A stretch of DNA of 64,000 nt from Trueperella pyogenes (lineage in GTDB: Bacteria > Actinomycetota > Actinomycetes > Actinomycetales > Actinomycetaceae): assembly GCF_900460345.1 (NCBI RefSeq), contig NZ_UHHW01000002.1:1984001-2048000 (forward strand). The letters are read 5' to 3'. Of the stretch, positions 46,799-61,550 are shown one piece after another. The notes under the pieces are model-generated. The model saw only the letters and a program-made list of their open reading frames with translations, was not told where the DNA came from and ran no database searches. Every line of letters begins with the position of its first letter. Position 1 is the stretch's first letter. Made by a program: the position numbers and the translations under genes.

Positions 46799-49700
46799 CT
46801 AGGCGCGCTGTTTGCGTTGTGCCCAGGTGAGGCCTGCCAGCACGAGTAGTCCTCCGATGCCGCCGAGCCAGGCGACGCCGGCGCCGCCGGTGCGCGGCAG
46901 AGTACCGGTCGAAACATTGGCAACCTGAATATAAGCTGCAGTTTTCGAAGGCTCATCATTACGCTGGAATACGTTAATCAGAGCATCTCCGCCAATTTTT
47001 GCGTGTTTCTTCGAATCATAGAATTGCACCTGCTGGTAACCGTCGTTGTCAGGGTAGATCTGGAATAAGATCGGCTCGGGAAGCAACTGGTATCTCTCTC
47101 CAGAATCTTGTTTCACCGGATTGGGGGCCCTCGTCTCTACGAGGTAATAGAACGTGTTTGTTTTCAAGGATGCTGAATAAAACGCGCTTGTCCCCTCGGG
47201 TACTGTCATGATAATCCCCGAGTTCCAGTCAATCTTCATATTCTGGTCGGCCCGATAAATCGTAAACTCGGCACCCGTTAAAGGTAGGGTCTTATTCTTG
47301 AAATCCACCTTCTGAACTTGCAGGTCCACGTCTAAACCAGACGGAGGAATAGTCACACATGCATCATTGTCATCCCACGCGTCCTGAGGCTCGCCGGCAA
47401 GGCTGACCAGGTTGGGGACGCCGTCCGGTGAGACATTACCGCCCTTGGCATCCGAACAAGTTGATACTTTCTCCCAATCAGTGAAGGTAATACTCTTCAT
47501 CGGTCGGAGATGGACTCGCACGGGATAGCTGATTTGCGTGCTAGCTTCTAATTCTACCCCTTCGGAAATAAGGTAGGATTTATCTTTAGCGAGAGGAATA
47601 TGTAACTTATCAATAATCCCCCGGTAAGGAGCCACTTCATTTTCGGCAATCTCAACTTTTATGATTTCAAATCCGGACGGAACAACTGGGTGATCCAATA
47701 CTTGTCCAGAAGTACCTTTTTTATCTGAAACATTTGCGACCGTCACAATGTAATCAGCAACGTAGTGATCATCACTTATCTTTGACGCAGTTTGGTTGGC
47801 GGCTTCCTTTTTCACCAGGAAGGACGCCTGTTCGCTCGGGGGACATGGATTAGACTCGCTCGGAGAGGTAAGACCCCAATTCGCAACATTTCCGTTTTGT
47901 GTCACTATCATCTCGGACGTTGCGTTTGGGTATCTAACAAATCCGTGCGTGATAATAGTTGAGTTGTAAATTTTTTCAGGACCGTTTTTGAGGGAAGGAA
48001 TTTCATCGAGTTTCGAAACGCCCTTTACTTTCTTGAGCACCTCTTCATAAGTTAACTTTGGATCATTTGGCTTTGTAGCAGGTTGCGTATAGAAGGCTGA
48101 ATTGCGCAAGAAATCGTCAACAAAGATCACAGAACCACCAGCATAAGCTAGACCCATTGGATAAGTTCCGGTATCGGCGCGTTTAAAATCGTCATGATCG
48201 CCGAGGGAAGCATAACGCCCTTCAACGCCGCTTATTTTTCCTACCCGCATTGGAGTTCCTTCCGGTTTTCCCGGCCACATTACTAGGTAACCATCCATCT
48301 GGGCAGCTAGAGTTTCTCCACTCGGAAGGGTAATAAAGTCTCCTCCCCAGTTAGTATTGCCGGAGGTCTGAGCAATTCTCCTTACATTATTGGGCTGTGG
48401 AATACCTTTTTCATCGAGTGATATTTCGAATACCGGGGATGGCGATGTTGGCATACGATGCTCTACAACTGTGTGTTTGACAGCGCCTAAGTATAGACTC
48501 TTACCTCCGGGCGCCATAGACAAAGAGTTAAACCCTTTAACGCTTTCCCCAGCAGGTAAACGCACTGATATATTCCTAGTTAGTTTGCCAGTCTCGATAT
48601 CGTAGACGTACAGATTTGCACCGGACTTTGTATCTAATGCAACGGCGTACATCGTCTTATTATCGGCGCTTACCGCAATATCGGAGCTTGCGGAGATTGC
48701 CAGTTGCAGCACACGTCCGGTTTCTTTTCCATCTTTGAACTCGACGGCGTAATCACCTTGATAAATCTTCCCGTCATTTAATCTTAGAAAGCCTGACTGC
48801 GGTTTTGCTGATACCCAATAAATCCCAGGATCAGCTCCGCACGTCGATGGTGAGCCCGGACCCGGCACAATAAAATCTGCTGTGTTCACAGGTGCAGATA
48901 AAGCTTTCTTCGTGGCTCCACACAGCTTGAGACCAAATTGTTTAATCGTTGGACTGCCCGAAAGCTGCGCTGAGGCAGTGATTTCAGCCCCTTTGGGAAC
49001 TACCGCAGACTGAAGGCGCACGCCATCTCGCACAGGGTAAAACTCAACTTCAATGTAATCTGCAGAAATCTTTACAACACGTCGTTGTAGAGAAACACCA
49101 TCTTCAATTTGGGATATGTTCACCTGATAGGCTTCTCGGGCCAAGATGCTGTTAGGCGCTTCCACTCGCAGAATCGCTTTCTCAAAACTCCCTTCTTCTG
49201 CGATACTAGCTTTAACGCTCGGTGAGCTGCCCCGAACAAACGTAGGTTCATTAGTTTTCAACGTCCCACATTTGGTATCAACCCAATACACCGAGTCGCC
49301 ATGAGATGTGGTGAGATCCGGATTTCTATTGTTCACGTCGTCGCGAGGTGAGGGCGCTTGGGCGCCGTCCTTGGCTGTATTCTGTTTGGCACCATCATGC
49401 GCGCCGGACGGTAGGCCGGTGCCAGGCTGAGACCGTTTAATTTCTGAGGCTGAATCCGTTGACTGCATAATAGGATCGGGGGTGGGTGTTTCAACTTGCG
49501 CGAGTATGGAGACGTCCTTCTTGACGGTGTGCAAGGAAGGCGATTTTTTCCACGTAAGCTGTATTTTTGTCTGTGCTCCAGCTGGGAGCGTGATTGGGCG
49601 TGAAGGCTTGAGCGTGACTTTGATACCGGACTGGCTAACCGATAGGAAGTTAGGGGATGCTGTCGAATTATGTGCCACAGCTTCACCGTTGACAAAAACA

Positions 49701-49966
49701 ACGTTCTTGGCACTGTTCTCTTTAACTTCCTTGCCTCCGAAGGCACTGGATGTCAGCGTGATAGACGTTAATTCTCCCGCGATCTGGGTATTTCCTGTGA
49801 ACTGCCAATTACCAGCTATAACTTTTACGTCGGGATTAAACTTAACACTCTCAGTAGCGGCCTGCGCATAGTTGGAAACCGACAAGAGCCCCGCAAAAGT
49901 GAGCATAACAACAGCGATCATCGCCCATATGCGCTTAGCCAAAAACCCGGTCTTAGCAATCCTCAT
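46799..49966 (-). CDS. Large LPXTG-anchored pilus tip adhesin
   Basis: A 1055-residue secreted protein: N-terminal signal peptide ending AQA, a long region with WXG/beta-propeller-like repeats in the middle, a SpaA-type domain near the end (LPLTGAEFTIYRADQ, then FYYLVETRAPNP, an E-box), the sorting signal LPRTG (1023-1027), a membrane helix and an RKQR tail. This layout fits tip pilins such as SpaC/FimQ-like adhesins. Three pilus genes precede it on the same strand, and it starts one base after the minor pilin stop. Its ligand is unknown. GC content is visibly lower than in neighbours. Confidence 0.85.
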   Translation of the reverse strand: MRIAKTGFLAKRIWAMIAVVMLTFAGLLSVSNYAQAATESVKFNPDVKVIAGNWQFTGNTQIAGELTSITLTSSAFGGKEVKENSAKNVVFVNGEAVAHNSTASPNFLSVSQSGIKVTLKPSRPITLPAGAQTKIQLTWKKSPSLHTVKKDVSILAQVETPTPDPIMQSTDSASEIKRSQPGTGLPSGAHDGAKQNTAKDGAQAPSPRDDVNNRNPDLTTSHGDSVYWVDTKCGTLKTNEPTFVRGSSPSVKASIAEEGSFEKAILRVEAPNSILAREAYQVNISQIEDGVSLQRRVVKISADYIEVEFYPVRDGVRLQSAVVPKGAEITASAQLSGSPTIKQFGLKLCGATKKALSAPVNTADFIVPGPGSPSTCGADPGIYWVSAKPQSGFLRLNDGKIYQGDYAVEFKDGKETGRVLQLAISASSDIAVSADNKTMYAVALDTKSGANLYVYDIETGKLTRNISVRLPAGESVKGFNSLSMAPGGKSLYLGAVKHTVVEHRMPTSPSPVFEISLDEKGIPQPNNVRRIAQTSGNTNWGGDFITLPSGETLAAQMDGYLVMWPGKPEGTPMRVGKISGVEGRYASLGDHDDFKRADTGTYPMGLAYAGGSVIFVDDFLRNSAFYTQPATKPNDPKLTYEEVLKKVKGVSKLDEIPSLKNGPEKIYNSTIITHGFVRYPNATSEMIVTQNGNVANWGLTSPSESNPCPPSEQASFLVKKEAANQTASKISDDHYVADYIVTVANVSDKKGTSGQVLDHPVVPSGFEIIKVEIAENEVAPYRGIIDKLHIPLAKDKSYLISEGVELEASTQISYPVRVHLRPMKSITFTDWEKVSTCSDAKGGNVSPDGVPNLVSLAGEPQDAWDDNDACVTIPPSGLDVDLQVQKVDFKNKTLPLTGAEFTIYRADQNMKIDWNSGIIMTVPEGTSAFYSASLKTNTFYYLVETRAPNPVKQDSGERYQLLPEPILFQIYPDNDGYQQVQFYDSKKHAKIGGDALINVFQRNDEPSKTAAYIQVANVSTGTLPRTGGAGVAWLGGIGGLLVLAGLTWAQRKQRA

Positions 49967-49967
49967 G

Positions 49968-50687
49968 TTATTTCACTTCCTTTTCACGCCTTACGCGCAC
50001 CAGCATCGTTCCCGCACCCAGCAGTGCCAGGCTCGCTCCACCAAGTGCCATCACCGCGGCACCCGTATGTGAAAGCGGTGGCCGGGGCGGCTGGGGCGGT
50101 TCGGGAGGAGTCGGCGTCGGCGGTGTCGGTACAGGTTTAGGCTCTGCCGAGTAGCGGGTCTTGGCCTGAATATTCACTGCGCAATCCCACGTGTCACCAG
50201 CCCCGAGTGGCACGCTGACGAGGAAGGGATCAAGGTGGGAAAGCTTGTAGTGAGGATCTTCCGGGGCAATCCCCGAAACCATGTAGAGACCAATGGGAAG
50301 GCCCTTAAACGACACTGAGGCCTGGGCGTTCGTGAGGCCGACGTGCGGCTCGCCAACAAATCCGCGAGCCTTCGCCTCGTCGGTGGTCATCTTATCTATG
50401 CCGTCCCAACCCGCGAACGACGTCAAATCCACGCCCTTAACCTGTTGGACGGTAATTTTGAAACCGGCGCCGCTCGGTTCGGGCAGATCACCCGGAGACG
50501 GCTGATCGAACGGGTTTGGCTTGGGCAGAGTGATTGTCAACGAGGTCGACTCGCAGGTCACTTGCGCCGGCACGTTTTCCGTATCTCCAATCACAGGCTG
50601 GGCGTAAGCTGCCTGCGTGCCCACCGTCAGCCCTAATGCTGAAACAAGCACGAGGCTGCCCGTAGCTAGGCCCTTCGAGATTCTCAT
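49968..50687 (-). CDS. Minor pilin with LSHTG sorting signal
   Basis: A 239-residue secreted protein with signal peptide (ending AYAQ), a pilin-type domain with FKGLPIGLYMVSG, a Pro-rich stalk (TPPTPTPPEPPQPPRPP), then LSHTG, a membrane helix and a VRVRREKEVK tail. The usual Pro of LPXTG is Ser. It is coupled to the sortase gene by ATGA. The Pro-rich stalk before the anchor is typical of base pilins. Whether the unusual signal is read by the pilus sortase or a housekeeping sortase is open. Confidence 0.82.
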   Translation of the reverse strand: MRISKGLATGSLVLVSALGLTVGTQAAYAQPVIGDTENVPAQVTCESTSLTITLPKPNPFDQPSPGDLPEPSGAGFKITVQQVKGVDLTSFAGWDGIDKMTTDEAKARGFVGEPHVGLTNAQASVSFKGLPIGLYMVSGIAPEDPHYKLSHLDPFLVSVPLGAGDTWDCAVNIQAKTRYSAEPKPVPTPPTPTPPEPPQPPRPPLSHTGAAVMALGGASLALLGAGTMLVRVRREKEVK

Positions 50688-51685
50688 TCACGCTCTCCTT
50701 GGGTGCCGAAAATAATGTCGTTGAATTGGTCTGAGTCGCTGGCGGTGGTAGTACCAGCTGTGGTTGCGGTTTCGGGTGCGACGACGGCGTCGTCCACCTG
50801 CCGCTTGCTCTTGCGCACGTACCACATCAGGGCCAGCATGGCGAGCACAGCGCCCGCGATAAACAACCACATCCACCACTGGAGAGTGAAACCGGAGGCT
50901 TCGTCTAGCTCTTGGGCGGCTTGCTCATCCATCGGGGCACGCTCGGCGTGGACGAGGAGGCGGTGGGAGTTAATGCCGTATGGTGTGCAGGTGATTAAGG
51001 TCAGGAGGTCCTTACCCTCGACCTTATATAGGTTTTGCGCTTCTTCAGGCAGGACTACTTCTGTGCCATAGACGACGTAACGTAGTTTTTCGCCATAGAC
51101 GTCAACATATATTGATGCGCCTTCCTTGACGTCTTTAAGGTTGTCGAACAGTGTGGCTGTCTGTAGGCCAGTGTGCCCGGTCAACACGGAGTGCGTATTC
51201 TTCCCGCCGATTGGCAGGTCGGTGCCGAAGAGGTGGCCAATGCCCTGCTCAAGAGTGTCCGGGCGGGTGCCGTGGAATACGGGCAGGTCGACGTGGATCG
51301 AGGGAATCACGATACGTGCCATTGTTCCCGAAAGGTTGAGCTGCTCCAAGTATTCCTTGTAGGGCTCGTTGTCGTCAGACAGGCGGGCCGTCCACGGGTC
51401 AAGAATCGGGCCAACTGTACGGTTCTTGTTGTATTCGTGGGCGCGCTTAAGAGAATCTTCCAGCTGTGCGGTATCTGCTTCTTTCACGAAACTTTTGTAT
51501 TCGCTGGCAACTTCTTGCTGCTGAATGTTATTCCACTGCGTGGCGATCACCGGGTAGAGAAGCACGGTGATGCCGATGAGCACCACAAAAATCGGCATGA
51601 GCATGCCGTTCTTTTTGGGCCGTGCGGATGTCTCCGCTCTAGGTTCGAGCTTCGGTGCCGCGTTTGCCTGAGTGGTGTCAAGCAT
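50684..51685 (-). CDS. Class C (pilus) sortase
   Basis: A 333-residue sortase with two membrane helices. The lid motif DPW (96-98) is the mark of class C enzymes. His171 (LTGHTG), Cys233 (TLITCTPYG) and Arg242 (NSHRLLV) form the active site. It cross-links the LPXTG Thr of one pilin to the pilin-motif Lys of the next and so builds the fibre. It lies between the major pilin and the minor pilin. Confidence 0.95.
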   Translation of the reverse strand: MLDTTQANAAPKLEPRAETSARPKKNGMLMPIFVVLIGITVLLYPVIATQWNNIQQQEVASEYKSFVKEADTAQLEDSLKRAHEYNKNRTVGPILDPWTARLSDDNEPYKEYLEQLNLSGTMARIVIPSIHVDLPVFHGTRPDTLEQGIGHLFGTDLPIGGKNTHSVLTGHTGLQTATLFDNLKDVKEGASIYVDVYGEKLRYVVYGTEVVLPEEAQNLYKVEGKDLLTLITCTPYGINSHRLLVHAERAPMDEQAAQELDEASGFTLQWWMWLFIAGAVLAMLALMWYVRKSKRQVDDAVVAPETATTAGTTTASDSDQFNDIIFGTQGERE

Positions 51686-51979
51686 TAAGCCTTCTCCAGT
51701 AGTACATGTTTTGTTGCTCGGGCCGTGCGCCTCGCTCCCGAGACGTTCGGCGGCGGTGGCCGGACTGTTGGGTGCCTTGGCTGTTGGGCGCTGTGGCTGT
51801 TGGGCCAGACGTTGTTACGGACTAGACGTTGTTGCGGGCCGCCTCGAGGTTCTGTCCAACTGCTCGGATATCGAACCCCGAGGCACCCCACACCTTTGCC
51901 TAATAGTTAGGCTTCGTTGATTTTGTGTGCGTGCTACTGCCCGCTAGTGGGCATGTAACCTGCGTCCGTCTTCGCGAAC
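51686..51979. repeat. Intergenic region with tandem repeats between major pilin and sortase
   Basis: The 294-base gap holds GGCTGTTGGGC-like repeats (51762-51806), then a 17-bp pair, AGACGTTGTTACGGACT and AGACGTTGTTGCGGGCC (51807-51840). A weak hairpin TGCCCGCTAGTGGGCA lies at 51938-51953 after the pilin stop and may reduce read-through into the sortase gene. No gene is present. Confidence 0.65.
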
Positions 51980-53602
51980 TTAGGCCTTCTTGGTGTTGCG
52001 CTTAGCTGCGTAAACACCGCCACCGATGATGGCAAGACCGAGGATTCCGAAGAGCGCGACGCCGGCACCACCGGTCATCGGCAGCTTCGGCTTGACCGGG
52101 ATGTTGACGACGTCGGTCGCAACGTTGATCGTCGAGCCATCCATGGTGAACAGTTCTTGAACCTTCTCATTCGTCGAGTAGTTCTTAAGTACACCATTCT
52201 CATCGTACTCAAACTTCTCAGTCTTCTTAATAACACCACCAAGCGTCACTTGAACCGGAATCGGATCGTGGCGAAGCTCGAATCCAGCTGGAGCCTTTGT
52301 CTCAACCAAGCAGTAGTTGGTTGCCTCGACATCGGCGTCGTTTTCCGCATCATTCACATGCAGGCCATCGATAGTCACGGTACCGTCAGTTTCGGTGACA
52401 AACTTGTTCTTACCGTTGATGTTCAGCGGCTCACCAGCCAGCGTACCCTTCCCGTCGACAACACCACATGCGTAGATCTGGAACTCAGCACCGTTGAGCT
52501 TTTCGCCCTTTTCATCGGTCTTCTGAATCTTCACCTTACCCCAAGCGGAGACGGTGGTGTTGGTCTTCTCCCATGGCTTCTTGGGGTTGGGTGTTTCACT
52601 GGGTTTAACAGTGCCATCGCCCTTGCCGGTGTTCTTGTAGACCTGAGCCTGGTTCGGAGCCACAGCGGACTTGAGGACCTTAGCCTTGAAGGTCAAGACG
52701 GCCTTCGCGTTGGGGTCATCCTTCTTGGCCTGGGTTGCCTTCTCGAGGCCGGACTTGGTCAGAACAACAACGAGCTCGTCCTGGCCATCCTTGCCACCAT
52801 CGATAATGTTGACGGTGAAGTGCTTGTCTTCACCCTTCTCCAGCGGGGTCTTGCCAACCGTAACGGTGACGTCGCCTTCCTTGCCGTTGATGTCGAGGGC
52901 CGGATCGAGCTTATCGTAGAACGCGAAGTCGTTGATCTTCTCGTCCTTGCCCGGGGTCGGCATCGAAGCCTCAACCGTGAAGGTCACGTCCCCACCAGCG
53001 TGGACGCCCTTATCGACGACGGACTTGACGTTCTCATCAAGCGAGTTCTTCGGGTAAACCCAGACGGCGTAGCCCTTCTCATCCATGAGCCACTTCTCCT
53101 GGTTAGCCGGATCGGTGGTCGGGAGGAAGATGATCGACGGCGCAGCACCCTTGTAGGTCTTACCGTCCTTAGCAGTCGAGTTGGTTTCCGTCAGCAGGTA
53201 AGCGCCAACAGGCAGGTTTTCGAACTTGATCGTACCGTCGGCAGCGGTATTCTGGACGCCTTTATCGACAGCCTCAAGATTCTCTGCCGGGATGTTGTTC
53301 GGATCAAGAGCAGCAGCCGCCTTCAGACCATCGTTCGTCTTGAAGTCGACGTCCTTGATCTTCTGCAGCGTGAACTGGATGCCTTCAATCGCCTTAGCAC
53401 CAACGGTGTCGTTCTTCGCACCGTTAGCCTCGATCTCGCCAACACCCTTGGAATCGTCGTACTTCGTCAGGTAAATCGTGCCGGTCTTGTTGGTATCAAC
53501 AATCGAGTCGGGGGCGGTAGTTGCGTGGGCCGCCACACCTGCGAGCATCAACGCGCCCGCTGCCAAGGCAGCAACAACCGCCTTGCGCAAATGGTTAAAC
53601 AT
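51980..53602 (-). CDS. Major pilin, SpaA/FimA type
   Basis: From ATG 53602, behind AAGGAGAG, 540 residues: signal peptide, N-terminal SpaA-like domain, pilin motif WVYPKN whose Lys is the cross-link site, a middle domain, a C-terminal Cna-B domain with GAEFQIYACG and E-box YCLVETKAPAGF, then LPMTG (507-511), membrane helix and KRNTKKA tail. Internal isopeptide bonds are expected. It is the shaft subunit and the first gene of the pilus operon, behind a region of nearly 1 kb without genes that carries an 11-base C tract. Confidence 0.93.
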   Translation of the reverse strand: MFNHLRKAVVAALAAGALMLAGVAAHATTAPDSIVDTNKTGTIYLTKYDDSKGVGEIEANGAKNDTVGAKAIEGIQFTLQKIKDVDFKTNDGLKAAAALDPNNIPAENLEAVDKGVQNTAADGTIKFENLPVGAYLLTETNSTAKDGKTYKGAAPSIIFLPTTDPANQEKWLMDEKGYAVWVYPKNSLDENVKSVVDKGVHAGGDVTFTVEASMPTPGKDEKINDFAFYDKLDPALDINGKEGDVTVTVGKTPLEKGEDKHFTVNIIDGGKDGQDELVVVLTKSGLEKATQAKKDDPNAKAVLTFKAKVLKSAVAPNQAQVYKNTGKGDGTVKPSETPNPKKPWEKTNTTVSAWGKVKIQKTDEKGEKLNGAEFQIYACGVVDGKGTLAGEPLNINGKNKFVTETDGTVTIDGLHVNDAENDADVEATNYCLVETKAPAGFELRHDPIPVQVTLGGVIKKTEKFEYDENGVLKNYSTNEKVQELFTMDGSTINVATDVVNIPVKPKLPMTGGAGVALFGILGLAIIGGGVYAAKRNTKKA

Positions 53603-53618
53603 GTCTCTCCTTATAAAA

Positions 53619-53648
53619 AGTGCAGATAGTATACGCGTCATAAGTGCA
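53619..53648 (-). promoter_or_regulatory. Possible operator upstream of the major pilin
   Basis: AAGTGCA occurs at 53619-53625 and 53642-53648, each followed by an AGTAT sequence, just upstream of the ribosome site. TATACT on the minus strand near 53629 could be a -10 element. Both are tentative. Confidence 0.35.
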
Positions 53649-53975
53649 AAGTATGCATGTCTACTTATTCAGCAAATGTCGCGAAGAGGTCGCCGACCTG
53701 TGCGCATACCTCAGTATAGATACCCAGAAAAATAAGGAAAGTCGTCACGTAGCCCTGCAACAAATACAGCCAAAGCCAATTTTCTTCACTTGGTTAGATT
53801 ATTACTAATATGCATTTATATTCACAGCTTGATAAAAAGCTGAATTTTTTAGGTCAGCCCAAACTCTCCAATATGGATAATAATTACACCCCATAAAATC
53901 CATGTATACCCAACGAAAAACATCACCCCAAGACACGATCGCTGCAGTAGCGGCTCAATAAAACCCAGAAATGCA

Positions 53976-53986
53976 CCCCCCCCCCC
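53976..53986. repeat. 11-base C tract upstream of the pilus operon
   Basis: Eleven C in a row on the plus strand (G on the pilin coding strand), 374 bases before the major pilin start codon, in otherwise AT-rich DNA. Such tracts change length by slipped-strand mispairing. The region 53603-54570 has no gene I can support. Confidence 0.9.
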
Positions 53987-54017
53987 GCCAAAAATTCGTC
54001 TGACAACCGGGATGCGG

Positions 54018-54037
54018 ATAGCCTTGAAAAAGGCTAT
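54018..54037. other. Short hairpin near the C tract
   Basis: ATAGCCTT and AAGGCTAT form an 8-bp stem around GAAA, 32 bases from the C tract. It may be part of a long untranslated leader or a small terminator. Confidence 0.5.
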
Positions 54038-54214
54038 TAATCCGACAAATGAAACAGATTACGCACTTCTTGCAAGAAATGCGGGTATTTCGGATGTCGC
54101 CACCATGGGACAACTATTAGGGCTTTCGTCTGAATACTCACGCATTAGACCCACGTTTTGTCTATTAACCCACCCTGTCAGACGGAAGCAGCGCCCGCGT
54201 TCCACCTCAGATAA

Positions 54215-54250
54215 AAAGTGGCGGGCCGCCATCCACGCTAGGCGGCCCGC
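54215..54250 (-). terminator. Terminator facing minus, downstream of moeB
   Basis: GCGGGCCGCC and GGCGGCCCGC pair perfectly over a 10-base loop. On the minus strand the stem is followed by CACTTTTTATC, giving a T run. It would stop transcription coming from the P-type ATPase-moaD-moeB operon before the pilus region. Confidence 0.75.
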
Positions 54251-54491
54251 CGGGGGCAGACGCTCCAACCTTCGCGGAGAAGACTGCACAAATTTCTTCT
54301 CCAGTCGGCGCGTCACGCTATTTTCAGCATCACACACACGAAAGGGAAACCAGGATTTCCTTAACGATGAATCCAGTATGACAACGAAGGCTTAGATATC
54401 CATTAGCACTACCTGGGAATTGTCTGGGAATTTTTCCCCTTCCCACTGTGCACATTTCAGCCACAGTCACTGCGGCTGCTGATCAAGCGGA

Positions 54492-54559
54492 AATCTATGG
54501 GATCAAATCGGACTGATCTTGGTATATACGAAGATCGGTCCAGAATCGTCCCACAGATT
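54492..54559. repeat. 68-bp palindromic element, copy 1
   Basis: It starts AATCTATGGGATC and ends ATCGTCCCACAGATT, with GGTATATAC at the centre. It is the most diverged of three full copies and begins 11 bases after the moeB stop codon. Confidence 0.85.
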
Positions 54560-54570
54560 CCCGGATAGCA

Positions 54571-55377
54571 CTACTTCCCCGCAGCGAAGGGAATTTCCTG
54601 CATACGGCCAGCCAGCACGTCAATAAACAAGACCCGCCCAACTAGCGGCCGGCCAGCGCCCGTGATCAGTTTGATCGCTTCAGCAGCCATCACCGCACCC
54701 GTCTGGCCAGGTACGGCGCCCATGAGCCCAACCTCGGCGGTTGTCGGCACCGAACCCGCCGGCGGCTCAACAGGGAACAGATCCCGCAACCGCAAACCTG
54801 GTCCGGGGAACCCTGCGGCGACCGCCCGCGGCCCGGTCCAAAAAACAGACACCTGAGCCTGCCAGCCCAACAGCGCACCCCACACCTCCGGGATGCCCGC
54901 GCGCGCCGCCGCATCCGAGATCAGATAACGGGTGGGTAAATTATCCGTCCCGTCCAAGACGAGATCCCATCCAGCAAGTATCTCATCCACGTTGGCCTCG
55001 GTCAGGCGCACCGGAAAGACCTCCACATGCAGATCTGGATTGAGCTCTTTCAGCCGACGCGCAGCCGACTCCGCCTTCAGCTGCCCAATCGCCGCAGTCG
55101 AGTGAATAACCTGGCGTTGCAGATTGGTCAGATCCACACGATCTGCGTCTACGATGCCGATCGTGCCCACACCCGCCGCCGCCAAATACAGTAACGCGGG
55201 CGATCCCAATCCACCGGCGCCGACCATCAGCACCCGCGCTCCGAGGAGTCGGCGCTGGCCAATCTCCCCGATCTCTGCCCGCGCAATGTGCCGGGCGAAA
55301 CGTTCGCGCTGCGCGTCGGTCAGCTCCGGACCTGGCTCAACGAGGGGTCTGATCGAAAATGCTGCGCCCACGCTCAC
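54571..55377 (-). CDS. MoeB/ThiF-type adenylyltransferase without cysteines
   Basis: A 268-residue E1-like enzyme that should adenylate the C-terminal Gly-Gly of MoaD. It has the ATP site GAGGLGSPALLYLAAAGVG, DADRVDLTNLQRQ with the conserved Arg, and DGTDNLPTRY. It contains no cysteine at all: the two CxxC zinc pairs of E. coli MoeB are gone (GLRLRDLFP in place of CxxCLFP) and PTTAEVG replaces the cysteine-containing segment of related E1 enzymes. Start is GTG 55377, overlapping the moaD stop as GTGA. It probably pairs with that MoaD. Confidence 0.85.
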   Translation of the reverse strand: MSVGAAFSIRPLVEPGPELTDAQRERFARHIARAEIGEIGQRRLLGARVLMVGAGGLGSPALLYLAAAGVGTIGIVDADRVDLTNLQRQVIHSTAAIGQLKAESAARRLKELNPDLHVEVFPVRLTEANVDEILAGWDLVLDGTDNLPTRYLISDAAARAGIPEVWGALLGWQAQVSVFWTGPRAVAAGFPGPGLRLRDLFPVEPPAGSVPTTAEVGLMGAVPGQTGAVMAAEAIKLITGAGRPLVGRVLFIDVLAGRMQEIPFAAGK

Positions 55378-61468: not shown

Positions 61469-61550
61469 TCGGCACGCTATCCTAACCAAAACTAGCCCCC
61501 GCGATCAATTCGCACACGGTGACACTCGGCACCCTAGCCGCCTTGCTGAA

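What the first reader, a model, noticed from the sequence alone, without database searches (positions are those of the whole stretch)
53976..53986. Possible phase-variation switch for the pilus
An uninterrupted run of 11 C sits 374 bases upstream of the major pilin start, in a region of nearly 1 kb without genes. Homopolymer tracts of this length are typical slippage sites, and surface fibres are typical targets. In the present length, an ATG at 53971 reads through the tract to an early stop; one more C would put it in frame with an open stretch to 54395, so a small leader ORF could also be switched.
Basis: partly seen in the sequence, partly recalled or inferred. Interest (0 to 1): 0.75.

Follow-up and report, generated by a model that had tools for sequence, protein, structure and literature searches.

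The report
Slippery G-tract upstream of pilus genes
A run of eleven identical bases sits in front of a pilus operon in a Trueperella genome; it is one of five such error-prone runs in that genome, each at the start of what looks like a surface or secreted protein gene, so it is probably a random switch for the pilus, but how it would act is not shown.

Summary
The C11 run (53976-53986) is real and unlikely to be background. The genome holds five C/G runs of 10 or more (lengths 11-14), although shorter long runs are strongly depleted. Each of the five is a G run on the coding strand at the 5' side of a gene that looks secreted or surface-bound. A 96%-identical second copy of one tract-bearing gene start differs by its tract (G11 against G7) and by no other gap, so such tracts do change length here. 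Sortase-pilus genes are repeated targets: a G9 before this genome's second pilus cluster, a G13 before the orthologous pilin of T. bonasi, and G10-G12 before pilins in 4 of 7 Corynebacterium loci fetched. In five of these six loci the tract lies between -35-like and -10-like hexamers. The window's own tract fails that test: it lies 374 bp before the pilin start, about 260 bp upstream of a candidate core promoter shared with one relative. The plus-strand leader ORF is unsupported. The closest pilin orthologue (68%) has no tract, 27 of 30 pilin loci examined have none, and no second strain could be compared. Best reading: a slippage-prone regulatory tract of the pilus operon, mechanism unresolved; a new member of a known kind.

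The parts
53976..53986 (.). Homopolymer tract, C11 on +, G11 on the pilin coding strand; the proposed slippage site
   Evidence: Sequence; one of five C/G runs of 10 or more in the genome
51980..53602 (-). Major pilin, SpaH/EbpB family, LPXTG-anchored; first gene of the operon and presumed target
   Evidence: NF033902 318 bits; SpaA domains
50684..51685 (-). Class C (pilus) sortase
   Evidence: NF033745 271 bits; PF04203
49968..50687 (-). Minor pilin, probably base (partial match to the pilin family, below its cut-off; role inferred from size and position)
   Evidence: NF033902 54.6 bits, cut-off 95
46799..49966 (-). Large SpaA-domain LPXTG protein, probably tip pilin/adhesin (role inferred)
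   Evidence: PF17802; NF033902 39 bits, below cut-off
53991..54007 (-). 17-mer GTTGTCAGACGAATTTT ending 4 bases before the tract on the pilin strand; identical at the orthologous site of relative G007; candidate regulator site
53713..53741 (-). Candidate core pilin promoter: CTTTCC, 17 bases, TATACT; aligned to TTTTCC, 17, TATAAT in G007 (inference; the consensus scan found no sigma-70-type promoter here)
   Evidence: against:
53753..53768 (-). 16-mer TGTATTTGTTGCAGGG just upstream of the candidate promoter, identical in G007
54214..54443 (-). Conserved non-coding element ending in a GC-rich hairpin and T-rich tail; bounds the intergenic region upstream of the tract; probably an independent small RNA

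Best explanation
The tract is a slippage-prone G11 run, one of a small set of simple-sequence contingency loci of this Trueperella genome, lying in cis in the non-coding region upstream of a sortase-assembled pilus operon. Replication slippage changes its length, and this most likely alters transcription of the operon and makes pilus expression differ between cells. Shown here: the tract, its rarity, the placement of the genome's other long tracts at surface or secreted-protein gene starts, a length difference between two near-identical copies of one such gene start, and tracts at pilus genes of relatives, several inside a -35/-10-like pair. Inferred: that the window tract itself varies, that it affects the pilin, and that it does so from upstream of the candidate core promoter (by shifting or bending the DNA next to the conserved 17-mer, or by sitting in a distal promoter or leader) rather than by frameshift or core-promoter spacing.
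For: Five C/G runs of 10 or more in the genome, with G on the coding strand of the associated gene in all five: L009 5001-5012 (410 bp before a thioester-domain LPXTG gene, PF08341), L010 4992-5005 (start of a short hydrophobic-N-terminus ORF), L011 4994-5006 and L012 5026-5036 (signal-peptide regions of two LPXTG-like coiled-coil proteins, one in frame and one out of frame at present length), and the window. The L012 gene start has a 96%-identical copy whose only gap in 479 bp is in the tract, G11 against G7. The second pilus cluster has G9, 76 bp before its first gene, inside TAGACA-N16-TATCCT. T. bonasi, orthologous pilin (61%), has G13, 85 bp before the ATG, inside TTGACG-N20-TTTAAT. 4 of 7 Corynebacterium sortase-pilus loci have G10-G12 before the pilin, 3 of these 4 inside TGGACA/TARATT. 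Tracts lie in the N-terminal coding part of SpaA-domain pilus genes in G005, G008 and T. bonasi. The 17-mer beside the window tract is identical at the orthologous site of G007, within poorly conserved intergenic DNA.
Against: The window tract does not fit the -35/-10 spacer pattern (best score 3, p 0.997) and lies far from the candidate promoter. A scan found no sigma-70-type promoter in 53590-54560. The closest pilin orthologue (G096, 68%) and G007 (51%) have no tract, and only 3 of the 30 family pilin loci examined have a G run of 7 or more near the start (30 best of many matches in 135 of 213 genomes). Similarity of tract flanks to T. bonasi is weak (p 0.012). In the rest of the genus most of the 19 tracts of 10 or more are not at pilus genes. 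No strain, read or expression data were available.
Confidence: 0.55

Rival explanations
1. The tract is hypermutable but without effect on the pilus: it lies upstream of the true promoter in a spacer between the small-RNA-like element and the pilin promoter, and its length is neutral.
For: 374 bp from the start and about 260 bp from the candidate promoter; fails the spacer test; absent from the closest orthologues; unexplained tracts at other genes exist in the genus.
Against: Long runs are depleted in this genome, and the other four of this length are at surface or secreted-protein gene starts with the same G orientation; the second pilus cluster also has a tract.
Confidence: 0.25
2. Leader-peptide attenuation as for Pil1 of Streptococcus gallolyticus: a distal promoter makes a long leader RNA with a short ORF across the tract on the pilin strand; tract length sets where translation stops and so whether transcription reaches the pilin.
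For: Distal position and long leader; on the pilin strand the three frames stop at 21, 53 and 127 bases past the tract, so slippage would move the stop. Distal tracts with no promoter match also occur before pilins in Corynebacterium L104 (229 bp) and G157 L137 (429 bp).
Against: No terminator-like hairpin on the pilin strand between tract and pilin; none in L104 either, one in L137. The only upstream start in frame is a TTG without an evident ribosome site. No distal promoter recognised.
Confidence: 0.12
3. One reading: slippage joins ATG 53971 to the plus-strand ORF ending at 54395 and so switches a small leader protein.
For: The frame arithmetic is correct.
Against: The ORF is divergent from the pilin and antisense to a conserved non-coding element with a terminator; no Pfam or NCBIfam match; frame found only in the window and G007 among nine loci by a motif scan; its frame is already open through the tract at present length but without a start codon. 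The G-strand rule of the other four tracts points to the opposite strand.
Confidence: 0.03
4. The exact length is an assembly or sequencing artefact, or a consensus of a mixed population.
For: Homopolymers are hard to read; some tracts in draft genomes look dubious (G006 C85 palindrome, C146 contig end).
Against: Five separate tracts of different length with consistent placement; a run of 11 cannot be an error of one base from the usual 3-5.
Confidence: 0.05

Closest known systems
Sortase-pilus G-tract switch of Bifidobacterium breve UCC2003 (bbr_0113 and bbr_1889; PMC9187656: abstract and sections on pilus assembly and on other strains read)
   Same: Actinobacterium, sortase-dependent pilus cluster, homopolymeric G-tract on the coding strand at the 5' side of the cluster, replication slippage
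   Different: There the tract is inside the first pilin gene and joins its signal peptide to the rest; here it is 374 bp upstream in non-coding DNA and the pilin ORF is intact
Bordetella pertussis fim2/fim3/fimX promoter C-stretch (PMC1891110: passages read)
   Same: C/G homopolymer of similar length upstream of a fimbrial major-subunit gene; length polymorphic and tied to transcript level in that paper
   Different: Chaperone-usher fimbriae; there the C-stretch is part of the promoter; no such promoter was recognised at the window tract
Streptococcus gallolyticus Pil1 leader-peptide phase variation (PMC3894217: abstract and model section read)
   Same: Sortase pilus with a repeat upstream of the operon in a long leader
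   Different: GCAGA pentamers, a mapped leader peptide and a terminator; here a mononucleotide tract and no terminator-like hairpin between tract and gene
Gardnerella homopolymer tracts (PMC11287997: passages read)
   Same: Actinobacterial G/C tracts of 8 or more upstream of or in LPXTG and other surface-protein genes; length variation shown for one tract
   Different: No pilus switch described in the passages seen

Membership tests
Simple-sequence contingency locus (phase variation by slippage) | Homopolymer long enough to slip and rarer or longer than background | tested here: met
   G11; five runs of 11-14 against depletion of runs of 8 or more
Simple-sequence contingency locus (phase variation by slippage) | Tract length varies between cells or strains | not testable with these tools
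   One genome per species held. Met for another tract of the same genome between two gene copies, not for this tract
Simple-sequence contingency locus (phase variation by slippage) | Length changes expression of a gene | not testable with these tools
   Needs RNA or protein data
Intragenic pilus G-tract switch (B. breve type) | Tract inside the pilin gene, between signal peptide and the rest | tested here: not met
   Pilin ORF intact with its own start; tract 374 bp upstream
Promoter-spacer homopolymer switch | Tract between recognisable -35 and -10 hexamers of the target gene | tested here: not met
   Window best score 3, p 0.997; 3 of the 12 tracts score 9 (p 0.008-0.023, not corrected for 12 tests)
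Leader-peptide attenuation switch (Pil1 type) | Terminator between the repeat and the operon | tested here: not met
   No terminator-like hairpin on the pilin strand between 53976 and 53602
Leader-peptide attenuation switch (Pil1 type) | Translated leader ORF across the repeat | tested here: inconclusive
   Only a TTG-started frame without an evident ribosome site
Bordetella fim-type promoter C-stretch | Homopolymer between an activator site and the -10 of a fimbrial gene | tested here: inconclusive
   A conserved 17-mer lies beside the tract, but no -10 follows it and no regulator is known

The most novel reading that the evidence does not exclude
Sortase-pilus operons of Trueperella and Corynebacterium are controlled by poly-G slippage switches placed in front of the major pilin, most often as the spacer of the promoter; the window holds a distal form that acts from about 260 bp upstream of the core promoter next to a conserved regulator site, a cis arrangement that matches neither the intragenic (Bifidobacterium) nor the core-promoter (Bordetella) type.
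Probability: 0.25. Interest if true: 0.6.

Novelty: new member of a known kind. Interest (0 to 1): 0.45.

Why it matters
If the tract switches the pilus, single colonies of this animal-associated genus would be mixtures of piliated and non-piliated cells, which bears on adhesion, biofilm and how a pilus-based vaccine or diagnostic would behave. The set of surface-gene tracts in one genome, and pilin-promoter tracts in two actinobacterial genera, make phase variation in these genera directly testable by amplicon sequencing. My searches of the held library listed no report of phase variation in Trueperella or of poly-G pilin promoters in Corynebacterium; that library lacks most subscription journals, and listings were capped.

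Tried and rejected
Plus-strand leader ORF: rejected as a gene.

Core-promoter spacer model for the window tract: rejected by the bracketing test, although it fits L107, T. bonasi, a G008 lipoprotein gene and three Corynebacterium loci.

Homology of the window tract with the T. bonasi tract through flank similarity: weak (p 0.012 for 40+40 bases; another tract of unrelated context scored almost as high), so not claimed.

Class-wide search for a -35-like hexamer followed by poly-G: 8 of 394 genomes matched, and the backwards control matched in 4 as I counted them in the listing, so no enrichment. The pattern asked for nine G after four free bases and therefore missed this genome's own G9 promoter.

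Strain comparison: one pattern from the tract's flank in viral contigs gave 0 matches; the pilin in genome contigs gave no relative (the tool may leave out records near the window's genome); the sortase alignment gave 8 loci, T. bonasi and 7 Corynebacterium.

Rfam: only one weak, implausible match (a microRNA family, 22 bits against a cut-off of 100).

Full report
What is there. The window tract is C11 at 53976-53986, that is G11 on the strand of the pilus operon. The operon runs leftwards: major pilin 53602-51980 (NF033902), class C sortase 51685-50684 (NF033745), a small pilin-like protein 50687-49968 and a large SpaA-domain protein 49966-46799. To the right, a ThiF/MoeB-like gene ends at 54571. 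The 968-base gap also holds a conserved element at 54214-54443, matched in 7 of the 8 other genomes of the genus and in none of the 30 genomes outside it. It ends on the minus strand in a strong GC hairpin with a T-rich tail and has no credible Rfam match.

Which organism. 

Is the tract more than chance. The genome (2,310,711 bases in 5 contigs) has five C/G runs of 10 or more, of 12, 14, 13, 11 and 11 bases, and nine of 8 or more. A first-order model from the window expects 79 of 8 or more and 1.4 of 11 or more. Against the plain model alone the excess of long runs is modest; against the strong depletion of runs of 8 or more it stands out. The genome has 147 C/G hexamers counted in both orientations, 50 of them inside the nine runs of 8 or more, so it has at most 106 runs of 6 or more, where the model expects 1165.

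The other four tracts. I read the surroundings of each. In all four the G run is on the coding strand. L011 4994-5006 lies in the signal-peptide region of a 957-aa LPXTG-like coiled-coil protein and is in frame. L012 5026-5036 lies at the end of the signal-peptide region of a related protein and is out of frame at present length. L010 4992-5005 lies between a start codon and a hydrophobic stretch of a short ORF and is out of frame; it is followed by a transposase-like ORF. L009 5001-5012 lies before a signal-peptide-like stretch of a small ORF, 410 bp before an LPXTG gene with a thioester domain (PF08341). Signal peptides, LPXTG motifs and the transposase were judged by eye. Of the four runs of 8-9, one (G9) is at the second pilus cluster (below); the other three were not assigned to a surface gene.

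Direct sign of instability. The L012 gene start has a 96%-identical second copy at C2:193935-194409. Over 479 aligned bases there are substitutions and a single gap of four, and the gap is in the tract: G11 against G7. The orthologue in G007 (81%) has no pure G run there. This shows length change for a sister tract, not for the window tract.

Pilus genes as repeated targets. (a) Second pilus cluster of this genome (pilin NF033902, 340 bits): G9 ends 76 bp before its first gene, with TAGACA three bases before it and TATCCT four bases after it. (b) T. bonasi pilin, 61% identical over nearly its whole length: G13, 85 bp before the ATG, TTGACG three bases before and TTTAAT four after. (c) Corynebacterium sortase-pilus loci: 4 of 7 fetched have G10-G12 at the pilin; the genes are NF033902 pilins (272-373 bits). 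Three of the four have TGGACA four bases before and TAAATT or TAGATT four after (p 0.012-0.018), 110 bp before the ATG in L102 and L103; L103 and L105 are near-identical there, so these are not three independent cases, but the same promoter carries G12 in one and G10 in the others. The fourth, L104, has G10 229 bp before the ATG with no promoter match (p 0.986). (d) SpaA-domain pilus genes with a tract in their N-terminal coding part: G008 (in frame), G005 (out of frame) and T. bonasi (C10 on the coding strand, out of frame). The bracketing p-values come from shuffled flanks and are not corrected for the 12 tracts; 3 of those 12 scored 9, always with offsets 3 and 4, the third being a G008 lipoprotein gene, and the other 9, the window among them, did not.

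Results against a simple story. The window tract scores 3 in that test (p 0.997). Among the 30 best pilin loci of the family search, only the window, T. bonasi and G157 (G10, 429 bp before the ATG) have a G run of 7 or more near the pilin start; 27 do not. The closest orthologue, G096 (68%), has none. G007, whose sortase is 94% identical, has none. Of the 19 runs of 10 or more in the other genomes of the genus, four are at or in pilus genes and one more lies 437 bases from one of these; others lie in or beside genes that look like a TetR regulator, an ABC transporter, an exonuclease and a large helicase-like protein (judged by eye), in repeats, or at doubtful contig ends. The class-wide pattern search showed no enrichment.

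Where the tract sits relative to the promoter. Alignment with G007 shows three conserved islands between the small-RNA-like element and the pilin: the 17-mer GTTGTCAGACGAATTTT that ends four bases before the tract, the 16-mer TGTATTTGTTGCAGGG, and a promoter-like CTTTCC-17-TATACT (TTTTCC-17-TATAAT in G007) about 110 bp before the ATG. The strict scan does not list this promoter. If it is the pilin promoter, the tract lies about 260 bp upstream of it. The first 13 bases that matter of the 17-mer (TTGTCAGACGAAT) occur exactly once in this genome and twice in G007, one of these at the orthologous site. This makes the DNA beside the tract a candidate regulator site, which G007 keeps without the tract.

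Mechanism. I take the tract to be a slippage-prone cis element of the pilus operon (0.55). I cannot say by which step it acts. A change of spacing or bending beside the conserved 17-mer, or a distal promoter or leader, are the open options. Frameshift of the plus-strand ORF is unlikely, as is the core-promoter spacer. Leader-peptide attenuation as in S. gallolyticus (PMC3894217) is possible but lacks a terminator. Neutrality has about one chance in four.

What is known. Poly-G slippage controls sortase pili in Bifidobacterium breve, inside the first pilin gene (PMC9187656). C-stretches in promoters control Bordetella fimbriae (PMC1891110, passages). Homopolymer tracts at surface genes are common in Gardnerella (PMC11287997, passages). 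So the kind is known. Searches for Trueperella or Arcanobacterium with phase variation listed two papers each, none about this by title and abstract.

Noticed in passing
window 54214-54443 (-): Conserved non-coding element with a GC hairpin and T-rich end, 72-79% identical in 7 of 8 other genomes of the genus, no credible Rfam match; looks like an undescribed small RNA.
   Followed up: partly
window about 54488-54563, also near 61550 and 63795: Dispersed, partly palindromic repeat of about 75 bp with 10 further sites in this genome.
   Followed up: no
window 50684-53602 against L086 (G007): Sortase 94% identical but the adjacent major pilin only 51% identical between the two species: the pilin has diverged or been exchanged far faster than its sortase.
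   Followed up: no
L077 4054-4063 (T. bonasi): G10 inside a very long ORF (about 746 codons before, 968 after) that is out of frame at present length; looks helicase-like by eye, perhaps a phase-variable defence gene; the family search failed on coordinates.
   Followed up: no
L082 4026-4035 and L081 4032-4041 (G007): G10 inside a TetR-like regulator (out of frame) and G10 just before the start of an ABC transporter gene; gene names by eye.
   Followed up: no
L072 4076-4085 (G008): G10 between TTGACA and CATGGT before a lipoprotein gene: another candidate promoter switch.
   Followed up: partly
L107 6345-7082 and 7289-10639 (G000 second pilus cluster): A short copy of the N-terminal part of the large pilus protein stands just before the complete gene.
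   Followed up: no
L010 4992-5257: A tract-bearing short ORF is followed by a transposase-like ORF, as if an insertion element had cut the gene.
   Followed up: no
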